From a virus: 26,261 nucleotides of DNA. The notes below the pieces were generated by a model. That model searched no databases, was not told where the DNA came from, and saw only the letters and a program-made list of their open reading frames with translations. The position numbers and the translations under genes are program-made. Of this stretch, positions 4,707-26,261 are shown one piece after another (the first letter of the stretch is position 1; every line of letters starts with the position of its first letter). The stretch spans positions 1 to 26,261 of IMG/VR virus record IMGVR_UViG_3300044800_000035; one strand, 5' to 3'.

Positions 4707-5569
4707 CAGTATGCCGTCTCCGGTATGGGGATATAGGGAAAACCCCTGAAATTGGAGCCGTTCGAAAACTTGCTCGCGCATGTTGCCTTCTGATGATCGC
4801 AGCCAGGATAGATATTGAATGCGTCGGTAGCTATTGGGACGTTATTCAGCGGGAGAATCAGGTTAACAATGCCGTTCGTATGCAGGAAGGATTTGATCGT
4901 TCGCGTGATCCCGGAGTTGAGTCCGGACGTGAATTTGATTACACCGAGGTCATGGTAGCCATCTACTTCTGGCCTGTTCGTTGAAAAGCTGTTGACAGTG
5001 AGCGTTCCGGCAATGACGAGACCCGTGTTCGTAAATGACGACTTTACTACTCCACATCCTGCGCCATATAGCGACCAGACGCATCCCGGCTGATAGACAT
5101 TCACTGGCCACGGGGATTGCAGCAACTCAAGCTGGCTGAGCACCTTGAGCTTTGCATATGTCCTTCCCATTTCGATGTCAGAGACGACGCCGGTGAACAG
5201 ATTATAACCGCCCGTTGCCGTAGCACCCCATGAAGGATAGAACACGCGCTCTAATTTCACGGTAGCACCATCGAGAGCGCCGTTCCGGCAGGCGGCCAGA
5301 AAAGCGATACCTCCTATCAGGGCGGCTGCCGTAGGATATACATCGATCCCTAACTCATCAACTTCGAGCCCGCGCATTTGCGTTATCTTGCTGCGTTTCA
5401 AAAGCAGGCCGGCAGACAGGAAGGTATCGCCGCTCCAGACAACATCAGTATCGAGCGTCGTATAATATAGGACAGTCCCGTCGAGCAGGGTCAGCGTGAA
5501 GACCTCAGCCACATAGAATTGGCTGCTGTTCTGCAATAAGGTAATCAGGCCTCCGGCTACCGTCTTCAT
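4706..5569 (-). CDS. DUF2163 / BR0599-type minor tail protein
   Basis: A 287-aa protein of the DUF2163 family, corresponding to GTA gp13 and functionally to lambda gpL. It is a tail-tip hub component that often carries cysteines for an iron-sulphur cluster. The C-terminal half has the typical cysteines: YQPGCVWSLYGAGCG (about residues 158-172) and YPGCDHQKATCASKF (about 254-268), followed by NFRGFPYIP. Cluster binding is known for related tail-tip proteins and is only inferred here. The start overlaps the DUF2460 stop (TAATG) and the stop overlaps the NlpC/P60 start (ATGA), so the three are likely translationally coupled. Confidence 0.85.
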   Translation of the reverse strand: MKTVAGGLITLLQNSSQFYVAEVFTLTLLDGTVLYYTTLDTDVVWSGDTFLSAGLLLKRSKITQMRGLEVDELGIDVYPTAAALIGGIAFLAACRNGALDGATVKLERVFYPSWGATATGGYNLFTGVVSDIEMGRTYAKLKVLSQLELLQSPWPVNVYQPGCVWSLYGAGCGVVKSSFTNTGLVIAGTLTVNSFSTNRPEVDGYHDLGVIKFTSGLNSGITRTIKSFLHTNGIVNLILPLNNVPIATDAFNIYPGCDHQKATCASKFSNGSNFRGFPYIPIPETAY

Positions 5570-9320: not shown

Positions 9321-10079
9321 TTAGTATTCGTACACGCTGCATGTGCCGACGATATTTGCATCGTCAGCCATCATGCTGATGTCGAGTTCCGGTATGTTGA
9401 AGTCTTCCAGTTTCGTTGCCAGCGCCAGCTTGCTTGCCACGCATCTGTTGAAAGTCATCGTGAGCTGCTTCCCCTGATAGACCTGATTTAGGGTCATCGA
9501 GAAGAACGGGGAGAGTCCGAGCAGCTGGTTGTTGATCGTGAATTTCGTGCCGGGAGCGACGGTTGTCGTGTAGATGTAACTGATCTTCAGGACGGCGTTC
9601 GCGTCGGCAGAGTTGAAGGTGTACACGCCCGCCGCAACGGAATAGACGCCGATGCCTGTCGCTGTCGCGCCCCTTGTCAGGGGGAGTCCTGTTGCCGAAT
9701 AGATGACGCCGAGATCAGTCGTCCACGTCGCGTTATTGGTTACGGTGACTATGTATACAGAAGCTGCCGGAACCGTACCCGCTTCCTGGAAGGCCACTTT
9801 GTTTTCTGCCGGAGTCGTGACCGATTCACCGAACACCTGGTTAAACAGCGTTGCCGTGATCTTCGCGGCCTTCGCCTTTGCGGTCAATTTCGCAGTTCCT
9901 CTCGCTACTGCCAGCGGGAACTGGTACTGGCCGAACAATTCCTTCATCGTCCAGCTCATATCTACAGTCACGTCCTGCAATGCCCCGAAAGGCACCGGCG
10001 TGGGGTTTGTCACCGCTACGCCTGCAAGGGTGATTGTCGGTATGGCCCAGAGACTGCCTGATCCAAATTCGTATGCCAT
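9321..10079 (-). CDS. Major tail tube protein with inserted repeat-type domain
   Basis: A 252-aa tail tube protein. Residues 1-95 and 172-252 give the expected strand-rich tube fold (features include PFGALQDVTVDMSWTMK, FPLAVARGTAKLTAKAKAA and a C-terminal FNIPELDISMMADDA). Residues about 102-172 form an extra compact domain (from GTVPAASVYIVTV through GVYTFNSADA) that is clearly related to residues 27-96 of the connector (11236-12036). In phage tails such insertions often sit on the outside of the tube. It is expected to be one of the most abundant proteins, stacked in hexamers. Strong GGAGG signals precede it. Confidence 0.82.
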   Translation of the reverse strand: MAYEFGSGSLWAIPTITLAGVAVTNPTPVPFGALQDVTVDMSWTMKELFGQYQFPLAVARGTAKLTAKAKAAKITATLFNQVFGESVTTPAENKVAFQEAGTVPAASVYIVTVTNNATWTTDLGVIYSATGLPLTRGATATGIGVYSVAAGVYTFNSADANAVLKISYIYTTTVAPGTKFTINNQLLGLSPFFSMTLNQVYQGKQLTMTFNRCVASKLALATKLEDFNIPELDISMMADDANIVGTCSVYEY

Positions 10080-24317: not shown

Positions 24318-24512
24318 CTATTTCGCGTCAGGGTAAAGCAGCTCTTTGATCGTAACCGCGCCGCCCGACGCCTCCTCGATGCGAAGCGCGAGCTTTCGTC
24401 CGGGAACATATCGGGAGTTGCTACAGAGATTGTTTACGTAGTTCTCCGTCGTCCCGACTTTGCCAGCGAATTCTTTGCGGTTTTTATTTTTCAGGAATTC
24501 ATTTAGCTTCAT
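24318..24512 (-). CDS. Cro-like HTH regulator
   Basis: A 64-aa protein (MKLNEFLKNKNRKEFAGKVG start). KNRKEFAGKVGTTENYVNNLCSN (about residues 9-31) is a helix-turn-helix, followed by RKLALRIEEASGGAVTIKELL, similar to Cro/YdaS-type proteins. It is the first gene of the leftward programme. I chose the ATG at 24512. The other start, 18 bases upstream, falls inside the -10 region of the promoter. No Shine-Dalgarno is seen, and the predicted transcript begins only one or a few bases before this ATG, so the mRNA may be leaderless. It probably competes with the divergent regulator for the shared operators. Confidence 0.72.
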   Translation of the reverse strand: MKLNEFLKNKNRKEFAGKVGTTENYVNNLCSNSRYVPGRKLALRIEEASGGAVTIKELLYPDAK

Positions 24513-24520
24513 GAGTACGA

Positions 24521-24554
24521 AGTAAATCATATTACTTTACCCTTGTCAACCAAA
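24521..24554 (-). promoter_or_regulatory. Leftward early promoter with phased operator half-sites
   Basis: Read leftward: -35 TTGACA (24549-24544), 17-base spacer, -10 TTTACT (24526-24521). The -10 and spacer are covered by GTAAA-N9-TTTAC (24522-24540). A weaker half-site, CCAAA on the plus strand, lies 14 bases on at 24550-24554. The same layout, with the same 17-base spacing, recurs at 25551-25584. The region also lies upstream of the divergent regulator gene (24567), so one operator could control both sides. Confidence 0.72.
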
Positions 24555-24566
24555 ATATTTGACTAT

Positions 24567-25028
24567 ATGAAATCACTCAAAGACACGAAGCATGAAAACT
24601 TTCTGAGACTTTTCAATAAAAGCAAGATGAGCCGTCAAGACCTCATGGCCGCGCTTGATGCTACGAAGCAATATGTGAGTGCGCTAATCAGGAACAAAGC
24701 GGCGCTCGGCGAGGAAGCCGTGTTGAAGCTCGCCAAAATTTTTTCTGTTGACTGGATAGAGTTTTATCGGGTAGAGGGTAAAAGTCATGATGCCCTGGTG
24801 TCCGATTGGCCGGATGATCTGATTGAGCTTTGCAAGCACGCTAAGGAAATTCTCGACTCGGACACAATTTATGCTGATGCTCTGCGCGTGAATGTTGCCG
24901 CCTTCAAGGACTCAATTGATCTTCATAGAAGGCTTGACAATCTTGAGCAGACCACGTCGGCAGGGTTGCCCGCCGGTACTGGGCGAAGGGCGGCTTCTGG
25001 TATCGGCAAAAAACGGAAAGCAATATAA
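24567..25028 (+). CDS. Phage repressor-like HTH regulator
   Basis: A 153-aa protein transcribed away from the Cro-like gene. The N-terminal part has an HTH: MSRQDLMAALDATKQYVSAL, then RNKAALGEEAVLKLAKIFSVDW (about residues 21-62), as in XRE-type repressors. The second half is mostly helical (WPDDLIELCKHAKEIL, RRLDNLEQ) and lacks the Ser-Lys protease of LexA/CI-type repressors, so it would not self-cleave. The end is basic (RRAASGIGKKRKAI). It is in the place of CI and probably keeps the leftward genes off. The ATG at 24567 is chosen over TTG at 24543. No Shine-Dalgarno is visible before either. Confidence 0.7.
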   Translation: MKSLKDTKHENFLRLFNKSKMSRQDLMAALDATKQYVSALIRNKAALGEEAVLKLAKIFSVDWIEFYRVEGKSHDALVSDWPDDLIELCKHAKEILDSDTIYADALRVNVAAFKDSIDLHRRLDNLEQTTSAGLPAGTGRRAASGIGKKRKAI

Positions 25029-25041
25029 CCTACCTGCATAT

Positions 25042-25056
25042 GGAGGGAATACGATA
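25042..25056 (+). promoter_or_regulatory. Strong ribosome-binding site before an ATA start codon
   Basis: GGAGG (25042-25046) is followed by seven bases and then ATA (25054-25056), which is the only codon in a suitable place for the lipoprotein signal that follows. A five-codon frame, ATG GAG GGA ATA CGA TAA (25040-25057), ends across this ATA and could feed ribosomes to it. Confidence 0.6.
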
Positions 25057-25467
25057 AGGAAGACATATTTAGTTTTTGTCCTGATTTTTCTTGTGGGCTG
25101 CGCCTCTGTTGGCCGCCAGGTAGATCAAGGCGCGGTCGATAAAATCGAGAAGGGGAAGACGACCAGGGCGGAAGTCATTTCACTGATAGGATCACCCGAC
25201 AGGATCATGAACATCGGCACAGGGGACACGATATTTAGTTATCATTATGCCCGCGCAGCCGCTAAGCCGCAGTCCTTCATCCCGATTGTCGGCCCCTTTA
25301 TCGGCGGAACAAATGTCCAGTCCCAGTATATAAGCATCATGTTCGGTCCTGATGACGTAGTAAAAAATATTACTTCATCCCACAGCTCAAGCGAATTTGA
25401 TCGGGGCGCAGCTACCAGCAGCAAGGCCACGCTGCCCGACGTCGAGGATAACAAGCGACCTAAATAA
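25054..25467 (+). CDS. BamE/SmpA-like lipoprotein with apparent ATA start
   Basis: A 137-aa lipoprotein. Counting from ATA as Met gives (M)RKTYLVFVLIFLVGC: a Lys/Arg start, a hydrophobic core and a lipobox LVGC with Cys16. Next is a SmpA/OmlA (BamE) domain: GAVDKIEKGKTTRAEVISLIGSPD (about residues 25-48), then IGTGDTIFSYHYAR. This fold sits in the periplasm at the outer membrane in relatives. In a prophage switch region it is expressed with the repressor, so it may be a lysogenic-conversion gene that alters the envelope. No ATG, GTG or TTG lies at the correct place. Longer frames would put the signal peptide inside the protein. A terminator follows. Confidence 0.72.
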   Translation: MRKTYLVFVLIFLVGCASVGRQVDQGAVDKIEKGKTTRAEVISLIGSPDRIMNIGTGDTIFSYHYARAAAKPQSFIPIVGPFIGGTNVQSQYISIMFGPDDVVKNITSSHSSSEFDRGAATSSKATLPDVEDNKRPK

Positions 25468-25505: not shown

Positions 25506-25534
25506 GCCCCGGTTTTCGCCGGGGCTTCTTTTTA
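25506..25534 (+). terminator. Rho-independent terminator after the lipoprotein gene
   Basis: Arms GCCCCGG (25506-25512) and CCGGGGC (25519-25525) with a TTTTCG loop, followed by TTCTTTTTA. It ends the repressor-lipoprotein transcript and separates it from the next promoter, which begins 22 bases later. Confidence 0.88.
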
Positions 25535-25550: not shown

Positions 25551-25584
25551 TTTACTTGACATGAGTAAAGCGGTATGCTTTACT
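25551..25584 (+). promoter_or_regulatory. Rightward promoter with two overlapping operators
   Basis: -35 TTGACA (25556-25561), 17-base spacer, -10 TTTACT (25579-25584). Half-sites TTTAC (25551), GTAAA (25565) and TTTAC (25579) lie exactly 14 bases apart, forming two overlapping palindromes. The arms AGTAAAGC (25564-25571) and GCTTTACT (25577-25584) are exact complements. Spacing, -35, -10 and half-sites match the leftward early promoter at 24521-24554, so the same regulator should bind both. Start of transcription is predicted near 25591. Confidence 0.78.
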
Positions 25585-25590
25585 GTGCTT

Positions 25591-25945
25591 AAATCAACCC
25601 GTAGACCTCTTGCTTCATACGCGGATCGAACAGCAGCCTCGGATCACATGGGGATCATGGGGAGAGATAGCTAACTGGTCTGGCAAGCGAGAAGGGCGTG
25701 AAAAAAGAATCCTTTCGATAGCGTGATTGCGGGGCCGAGGGGTGGCAGCGGAAAGTTCTTTTATATCGTCATCCATTTAAGGCGGGGAGATAACCACACG
25801 GCCTCGTCAGCCAGGTGTGGAAAGCCGGACTTGAAGTGCCTACCCTCTCCCAGGGTGAGATAGGAGAAACGGCACAGAGACAGAAGGGATCAGCTGGTTG
25901 ACTATCAGGGTTTCCTTTCTGCCTCGCCCTAAGTGGATGACGAAA
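25591..25945 (+). ncRNA. Candidate structured RNA, or long structured leader
   Basis: About 370 bases between the promoter and the next gene hold no convincing ORF but can fold strongly. Domain A: CCTCGG (25637-25642) with CCGAGG (25735-25740), continued by ATCAC (25643-25647) with GTGAT (25723-25727), and an inner hairpin at 25688-25717. Domain B: a 22-position helix joins 25766-25787 to 25922-25943 (19 Watson-Crick pairs, two G-U, one A-C mismatch). It encloses three hairpins: 25794-25820 (CCACAC with GTGTGG), 25836-25875 (GTGCC with GGCAC, then CCTA/TAGG and ACCCT/AGGGT), and 25881-25921 (CAGAA with TTCTG). It ends 18 bases before the start codon of the next gene. No known RNA family is recognised. 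It may be a free RNA or a regulatory leader. Confidence 0.55.
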
Positions 25946-25961
25946 AAGCGGAGGTGTCACC

Positions 25962-26222
25962 ATGCCAAAAACCAAATTAGACAAGTTCCTGTTTGTTGCC
26001 ACGGTCATTCTTCTCATCGCCGCATCGTATTACATCCTTTATCCGGCATTGAAGAAGATCCATTACAACAGAACGCATGTTCTATCGCAGGAAGAAAAGG
26101 AGGTGCATTTCAAAAAGATCGCGGCAAGAGGTTTCTTCGTCGGCAAGGACGGGAAAAGGCCGTTTATGATTGTCGATGAAGACAACAAATTTCACGACGG
26201 CAAAAGGTGGGAGGGGTTTTAA
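25962..26222 (+). CDS. Small membrane protein downstream of the structured RNA
   Basis: An 86-aa protein (MPKTKLDKFLFVATVILLIA start) with one membrane helix (about residues 8-27), then a basic helical part (LKKIHYNRTHVLSQEEKEVHFKK) and a short Gly/Asp-rich end (GFFVGKDGKRPFMIVDEDN). GGAGGTG sits seven bases before the ATG. Position suggests control by the same operators as the structured RNA. The function is not recognised. The following gene starts two bases after its stop. Confidence 0.7.
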   Translation: MPKTKLDKFLFVATVILLIAASYYILYPALKKIHYNRTHVLSQEEKEVHFKKIAARGFFVGKDGKRPFMIVDEDNKFHDGKRWEGF

Positions 26223-26224
26223 TT

Positions 26225-26261
26225 ATGAATACTGAATCGGCAATTTTGGATGCGATCTCCG
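26225..26261 (+). CDS. Start of a gene running off the right edge
   Basis: ATG at 26225 with GGGAGGGG about nine bases upstream, inside the end of the membrane protein gene. The visible residues are MNTESAILDAIS. It is likely the second gene of this operon, and its identity would decide much about the system. It cannot be named from 12 codons. Confidence 0.6.
   Translation, partial: MNTESAILDAIS

What the first reader, a model, noticed from the sequence alone, without database searches (positions are those of the whole stretch)
25551..26222. Operator-controlled structured RNA joined to a small membrane protein gene
A promoter with phage-type operators drives about 370 bases with no convincing ORF and strong folding potential. 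The final 178 bases form a multibranched structure closed by a 22-position helix with only one mismatch, and it ends 18 bases before the start codon of a one-helix membrane protein. The layout (terminator, own promoter, structured RNA, small membrane protein, then another gene) reads like a self-contained cassette in the immunity region. Possible explanations are a regulatory leader, a stand-alone phage RNA, an RNA-protein defence or toxin unit, or a retron-like RNA if a reverse transcriptase follows. I recognise none with confidence.
Basis: partly seen in the sequence, partly recalled or inferred. Interest (0 to 1): 0.78.

Follow-up and report, generated by a model that had tools for sequence, protein, structure and literature searches.

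The report
New structured RNA in phage operons
A 178-base stretch in a phage's immunity region codes for no protein but for an elaborately folded RNA whose fold, with a nearly unchanged centre, recurs in two otherwise mostly unrelated uncultured phages and matches no catalogued RNA family, so it is probably a new kind of phage RNA tool whose job is still unknown.

Summary
Window 25766-25943 folds as a multibranched RNA closed by a 22-position helix, far better than shuffles (z -5). Two homologues exist among 2.9 million viral contigs. Their closing helix has a different sequence but the same pairing: 13 base pairs changed on both sides, 0 of 500 shuffles equal this. The 67-column core is 88% invariant, although the window phage shares almost nothing else with the other two. 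No Rfam family matches, even at lax thresholds; no reading frame is conserved; the first ~175 leader bases are unstructured. The RNA moves: a pL-type leader here, between two membrane-protein genes in one relative, between ParB and a diversity-generating retroelement in the other. Neighbour, operon and promoter distance all differ; there is one copy per record and no terminator behind it. It is thus a portable RNA module fused 5' to another gene. I favour a gene-independent cis-acting element of the early transcript (works like HK022 put, but is not a put RNA); a trans-acting RNA or a riboswitch-like leader remain open. The strand is likely but not proven. Retron and RNA-membrane-protein-pair readings are not supported.

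The parts
24318..24530 (-). cro-like HTH gene, first of the leftward operon
   Evidence: phrog_35 transcriptional repressor, E 3e-8
24522..24540 (.). operator GTAAATCATATTACTTTAC between the divergent regulators
   Evidence: exact GTAAA-N9-TTTAC, one of two in the window
24543..25028 (+). cI-like repressor gene (TTG start, or ATG at 24568)
   Evidence: HTH_3 E 1.8e-4; homologous to the repressor of the G001 phage, E 2e-11
24892..25467 (+). ORF of a BamE-like lipoprotein (moron) gene; true start uncertain, probably well inside this ORF after the repressor gene
   Evidence: PF04355 E 5.7e-5; phrog_3135 E 4e-18 over residues 60-168
25506..25525 (+). intrinsic terminator separating the repressor unit
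   Evidence: 8-pair stem, 7 G-C, T-rich tail
25556..25584 (+). pL-type promoter, TTGACA - 17 bases - TTTACT
   Evidence: sequence; not listed by the strict scan
25565..25583 (.). operator GTAAAGCGGTATGCTTTAC, between -35 and -10
   Evidence: exact second copy of the GTAAA-N9-TTTAC palindrome
25590..25765 (+). unstructured, unconserved first part of the leader
   Evidence: z +1.2; no flanking homology in relatives
25766..25943 (+). the structured RNA domain
   Evidence: z -4.98; two homologues with compensatory changes; model score 192.7 bits
25766..25787 (+). 5' arm of closing helix P1
   Evidence: pairs with 25922-25943; 8 of 21 pairs changed on both sides in homologues
25794..25820 (+). hairpin 1, CCAC...GTGG
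   Evidence: 91.7% of cells paired, two pairs with changes on both sides
25817..25883 (+). near-invariant core (GTGGAAAGCCGGACTTGAAGTGCC...GGAGAAACGGCACAGAGACAG) holding domain 2
   Evidence: 59 of 67 columns identical in three phages; two competing pairings of CGGC
25881..25921 (+). hairpin 3, variable
   Evidence: 81.5% of cells paired in its lower stem
25922..25943 (+). 3' arm of closing helix P1
   Evidence: as for the 5' arm
25962..26222 (+). 86-aa single-helix membrane protein gene, Shine-Dalgarno GGAGG at 25950-25954
   Evidence: no Pfam, PHROG or PADLOC family; weak resemblance to the 89-aa protein downstream of the RNA in G001 (1 of 1000 shuffles)
26225..26261 (+). start of the next gene (MNTESAILDAIS...), cut by the contig end

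Best explanation
It is a discrete, portable structured RNA domain (about 160-180 nt): a closing helix of free sequence holds a multi-way junction with an almost invariant core. It is transcribed from the phage's operator-controlled early promoter as the 5' part of a longer mRNA. SHOWN: it is a conserved fold, not a protein, not a known Rfam family, and it changes place between phages. INFERRED: because it is always fused 5' to some gene without a terminator of its own, but neither to the same gene, the same operon nor the same distance from the promoter, it most likely acts in cis on the transcript that carries it, regardless of which gene follows, the invariant core docking on a conserved host component, most simply the transcribing RNA polymerase, to make it read on through the operon (a put-like mode of action). 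The step 'binds RNA polymerase and antiterminates' is not shown.
For: Fold significance z -4.98. Two homologues found by pattern. Pair counts on three sequences: 13 pairs with changes on both sides, 90.1% of cells paired, 0/500 shuffles; slid controls 40-47%. P1 sequence wholly different between phages but paired throughout. Core 59 of 67 columns invariant while block spacings vary 17/18/19, not in threes, and variable columns fall in all codon phases, so no coding frame. Not in Rfam at gathering or lax thresholds. Portability: in G001 the RNA starts where homology of the upstream 2-TM gene ends (residue 70 = nt 5145; RNA from 5146), and in G002 the two genes flanking that site overlap with no RNA; in G002 it lies behind ParB and in front of a DGR; in the window it is in the pL-type leader. 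Co-oriented with the operon 3/3; no good terminator between RNA and the next gene in any; SD and ATG follow within 18-24 nt in two. No conserved protein partner: the window phage shares only the repressor (32%), one short 34-residue match and the RNA with the other two. pL position in the window like HK022 putL (PMC9378689).
Against: Only three members, so the placement pattern is weak statistics. HK022 has one put in each early operon (PMC9378689); here there is one copy per record. In G002 the RNA is about 5 kb into the operon. The terminator scans find no excess of terminators downstream of it. In G001 the upstream ORF reads 60 bases into the RNA, which would disturb folding if translated. 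The strand is favoured, not proven. No transcript data.
Confidence: 0.36

Rival explanations
1. Trans-acting stand-alone RNA: the domain is cut out of the early transcript (the 15-22 bp P1 helix would suit RNase III or similar) and works as a free RNA or ribonucleoprotein, for example in host takeover or counter-defence.
For: Neighbouring gene, operon and promoter distance are all unconserved while the core is nearly invariant; domain ends are sharp and set by P1; own operator-controlled promoter in the window; one copy per record suffices.
Against: No terminator after the RNA in any of the three; always directly in front of a gene; P1 in G001 is only ~15 bp, short for RNase III; target complementarity was not tested.
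Confidence: 0.3
2. Riboswitch-like or protein-binding leader that controls translation of the gene next to it; the junction core is the sensor and P1 the switch helix beside the ribosome-binding site.
For: Anatomy of an aptamer (variable P1, junction with invariant unpaired bases); Shine-Dalgarno and ATG follow P1 by 18-24 nt in two of three; the core has two mutually exclusive pairings of CGGC (25870-25873) with GCCG or UGCC that differ by 0.3-2.2 kcal/mol.
Against: The downstream genes are unrelated (1-TM protein, DGR target protein) and in G001 the start codon is 111 nt away; the SD is paired in the window model but largely open in G002; no aptamer family matches.
Confidence: 0.2
3. It is a DNA element (cruciform, origin, or miniature inverted-repeat transposon) rather than an RNA.
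For: Inverted repeat ends; the element changes place.
Against: Terminal repeats of mobile elements are the shared part, here they are the part that differs completely while the inside is conserved; G-U pairs are used in several helices; no target duplication visible on either side of 25766-25943; internal hairpins have compensatory changes too.
Confidence: 0.06
4. RNA part of a retroelement: a retron ncRNA or an accessory RNA of a diversity-generating retroelement.
For: Complementary ends like retron a1/a2; in G002 a complete DGR (target protein, bAvd, TR/VR, RT) starts 24 nt after the RNA.
Against: No RVT_1 in the window record or in the G001 record; the G002 template repeat (9925-10049) is elsewhere and the RNA shares no sequence with it; no Rfam retroelement RNA matches.
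Confidence: 0.05

Closest known systems
HK022 put RNAs (putL, putR)
   Same: Untranslated structured RNA in an early phage transcript; in the window it sits downstream of a pL-type promoter as putL does; no dedicated protein partner seen
   Different: put is ~70 nt with two stem-loops and occurs once in each early operon (PMC9378689); this is 160-180 nt, multibranched, closed by a long helix, one copy per record, and the model finds nothing in HK022 24.0-36.5 kb
Riboswitch aptamers (as a class)
   Same: Variable closing helix, junction with invariant unpaired bases, close to a ribosome-binding site in two of three
   Different: No common downstream gene, no match to any Rfam aptamer
Retron ncRNA
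   Same: Complementary 5' and 3' ends enclosing several hairpins, in front of a small membrane-protein gene
   Different: No reverse transcriptase in two of three records; the third has a DGR reverse transcriptase
Diversity-generating retroelement
   Same: In one relative the RNA lies directly in front of a DGR
   Different: The other two have none; the RNA is outside the TR

Membership tests
HK022-type put RNA | ~70-nt RNA of two stem-loops | tested here: not met
   162-178 nt, multibranched, closed by P1 (put features from PMC9378689)
HK022-type put RNA | sequence/structure similarity to HK022 putL/putR | tested here: not met
   model R1 on HK022 24.0-36.5 kb (put sites themselves not annotated in the record), best 7.4 bits, E 0.39
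HK022-type put RNA | a copy in each early operon | tested here: not met
   one copy per record; records may be fragments
HK022-type put RNA | located downstream of an early promoter, on the transcript | tested here: met
   pL-type promoter with operator at 25556-25584
HK022-type put RNA | antitermination in cis by binding RNA polymerase | not testable with these tools
   needs in vitro transcription
Riboswitch | conserved aptamer-like fold with compensatory changes | tested here: met
Riboswitch | related genes downstream | tested here: not met
   membrane protein, membrane protein at 111 nt, DGR target protein
Riboswitch | ligand-dependent switching | not testable with these tools
   two near-isoenergetic core pairings exist but no ligand is known
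Retron | adjacent retron-type reverse transcriptase | tested here: not met
   none in window or G001; G002's RT has the TR/VR pair with A-specific changes of a DGR; the window's right flank is unsequenced
DGR | TR/VR repeat pair and RT next to the RNA | tested here: not met
   present in G002 only, absent in window and G001
Any Rfam 15 family | covariance-model score at the gathering threshold | tested here: not met
   none; lax searches give chance-level matches only
RNA-protein toxin-antitoxin or defence unit | partner protein conserved with the RNA | tested here: not met
   window and G001 membrane proteins give no BLASTP match and only a weak ungapped similarity; G002 has a different 47-aa one upstream; no PADLOC hit
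MITE / mobile DNA | terminal inverted repeats shared between copies | tested here: not met
   the P1 arms are the least conserved part

The most novel reading that the evidence does not exclude
A new class of portable phage RNA: an autonomous, host-factor-binding RNA domain of about 170 nt that phages place in early operons in front of cargo genes, and that modifies the gene-expression machinery (RNA polymerase, ribosome or RNase) without any phage protein, unrelated to put, nut or any Rfam family.
Probability: 0.4. Interest if true: 0.85.

Novelty: new variant of a known kind. Interest (0 to 1): 0.63.

Why it matters
RNA-only control of phage early transcription is known, to my knowledge, essentially from one example, HK022 put. 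A second, larger and structurally unrelated RNA module that travels between unrelated phages while keeping its core nearly unchanged would point to a conserved host target and give a direct handle on it. Even if it acts in trans, it is a new RNA family, invisible to Rfam and to protein-based annotation, that sits in the immunity region and in front of cargo such as a diversity-generating retroelement.

Tried and rejected
Protein-based searches for relatives of the membrane protein in viral and genome contigs: none. Relatives through the terminase: 28 loci, none with the RNA. Relatives of the repressor by peptide patterns: none. blastn of the region or of the G002 RNA against phages and plasmids: nothing real. 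Pattern scan of all genome contigs: 10 hits, all chance by inspection. A third independent viral pattern: only the two known. Model R1 over ~400 genomes of the phylum that holds a Desulfovibrio MAG: none, without a positive control. Records sharing the ParB gene (L068-L077): no RNA. Strong inverted repeat near ParB in L075: inside genes, z about -2.4, dropped. Conserved translated peptides over the core (WKAGLEVPTLSQGE... on +, LCAVSPISP... on -): by-products of the conserved RNA, since spacings break frame and substitutions ignore codon phase. A visual likeness of the core to conserved regions of RNase P RNA was considered from memory; lax Rfam searches show no RNase P match. Splicing (intron) reading: no group I/II model match, and the elements lie between genes, not inside conserved ones.

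Full report
WHAT WAS CLAIMED AND CHECKED. The window is a 26,261-base virus record that ends 37 bases into the gene to the right of the finding. The closing helix 25766-25787/25922-25943, the 178-base span and the 18-base gap to the ATG at 25962 are exactly as described. The fold is far beyond chance: -79.4 kcal/mol against -57.4 +/- 4.4, z -4.98, 0 of 200 shuffles. A scan of the window for closing helices of similar span ranks it first. The upstream part 25590-25765 is not structured (z +1.2), so the feature is the last 178 bases, not 370.

SETTING. The layout is lambda-like (my reading of gene order): a cro-like gene (24318-24530, -) and a cI-like repressor (24543-25028, +) diverge over an operator, then come a BamE-like lipoprotein gene, a terminator (25506-25525) and a promoter TTGACA-17-TTTACT at 25556-25584. 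The palindrome GTAAA-N9-TTTAC occurs exactly twice in the window, between the divergent regulators and inside this promoter, so the same repressor very likely controls both. The RNA is thus in the position of the leader of a pL operon. No Rfam family matches.

HOMOLOGUES. Protein searches found none. A gapped DNA pattern made from the junction (GATAACC...GGAAAGCCGG) found two real homologues among 27 hits in viral contigs: L044 = record G002 (IMGVR_UViG_3300028916_000084), L082 8298-8469; and L051 = record G001 (IMGVR_UViG_3300009566_000002), L081 5146-5311. A second pattern on a different part of the core found the same two and nothing else, and a third again only these; the scan of 84,980 species genomes gave only chance hits. 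A covariance model from the three scores 193, 190 and 162 bits and finds no second copy in any of the records.

COMPENSATORY CHANGES. On the alignment of three the structure keeps 90.1% of cells paired, 13 pairs have changes on both sides, and 0 of 500 shuffles reach any of the five measures; sliding the partners drops pairing to 40-47%. P1 alone has 8 such pairs; its outer sequence is different in each phage. By contrast the core is almost frozen: 59 of 67 columns identical. The distances between invariant blocks differ by one or two bases and substitutions fall in all codon phases, so the conserved translated peptides are by-products. The core contains two exclusive pairings, GCCG/CGGC and UGCC/GGCA, within 0.3-2.2 kcal/mol of each other; whether this is a switch is open. 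Strand: the reverse complement folds as stably in each sequence, the consensus favours + by 5 kcal/mol, and the RNA is co-oriented with its operon in all three; I take + as likely, not proven.

IT MOVES. G001 and G002 are related phages (terminase 74%, ParB 40% identical). In G001 the RNA lies between a 2-TM gene and a 1-TM gene; homology of the 2-TM protein to its G002 relative ends at residue 70 (nt 5145), one base before the RNA (5146), and in G002 the genes flanking this site overlap, with no RNA. In G002 the RNA is instead 3 kb further on, behind ParB, and 24 nt in front of a complete diversity-generating retroelement: target protein, bAvd (PF22296, E 1e-25), RT (PF00078, E 2e-21), TR 9925-10049 and VR 9350-9474 with 23 of 25 differences at template A. 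At the corresponding place in G001 the genes abut. In the window it is in the other early operon, and that phage shares with the other two only the repressor (32%), a short 34-residue match and the RNA. The further records with the ParB gene lack the RNA. So a discrete domain bounded by P1 appears at different sites, in different operons and phages.

MECHANISM. Constant features: same strand as the operon, upstream of a gene, no terminator of its own, no conserved protein partner. Inconstant: which gene, which operon, how far from the promoter. Gene-independent action in cis on the early transcript fits these best, with the frozen core contacting a conserved host component; RNA polymerase antitermination as by HK022 put (PMC9378689) is the known precedent. 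It is not a put RNA by size, architecture, copy number or sequence. Against the idea stand the single copy, the mid-operon place in G002 and the lack of visible terminators downstream. A processed trans-acting RNA is nearly as likely; a riboswitch-like leader is possible (ATG within 18-24 nt in two of three) but the downstream genes are unrelated. The membrane-protein partner idea is weak: the two 1-TM proteins of window and G001 show no BLASTP match and only a marginal ungapped similarity (1 of 1000 shuffles), while the RNA is nearly invariant. The retron idea fails for lack of a reverse transcriptase in two of three records, with the reservation that the window ends at 26261.

VERDICT. A real, conserved, previously uncatalogued structured RNA of phages; my confidence is about 0.93 that it is a genuine RNA family (on this strand or its complement) and 0.36 for the preferred mechanism. 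In the papers searched nothing describes it, but the library lacks most subscription journals.

Noticed in passing
L082:8493-11252: Complete diversity-generating retroelement (target protein, bAvd, TR/VR pair with 23 of 25 mismatches at template adenines, RT) in a phage early operon directly behind the structured RNA.
   Followed up: partly
L081:13600-13900 and L082:14390-14650: Intergenic region between the large helicase-like gene and the following primase-like gene holds repeated direct and inverted copies of CTCCAACC(C/T)TCCCC in both phages; looks like a replication origin or iteron region.
   Followed up: no
window:17659-18987 and L083:5082-6257: Both phages carry a polytopic membrane protein next to a small secreted-protein gene; the window's is an O-antigen ligase-like Wzy_C protein, suggesting serotype-converting cargo near the structural genes.
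   Followed up: partly
window:24892-25467: BamE-like lipoprotein gene (phrog_3135) directly behind the repressor, in the place of lambda rex; possibly an outer-membrane superinfection-exclusion moron.
   Followed up: no
L082:8244-8296: A-rich/T-rich hairpin typical of a bidirectional terminator lies about 15 bases upstream of the structured RNA in G002, without obvious room for a promoter between them.
   Followed up: no
L081:5146-5208: The ORF of the upstream 2-TM gene runs 60 bases into the RNA and stops in its core, so its last 20 residues are RNA-derived.
   Followed up: yes
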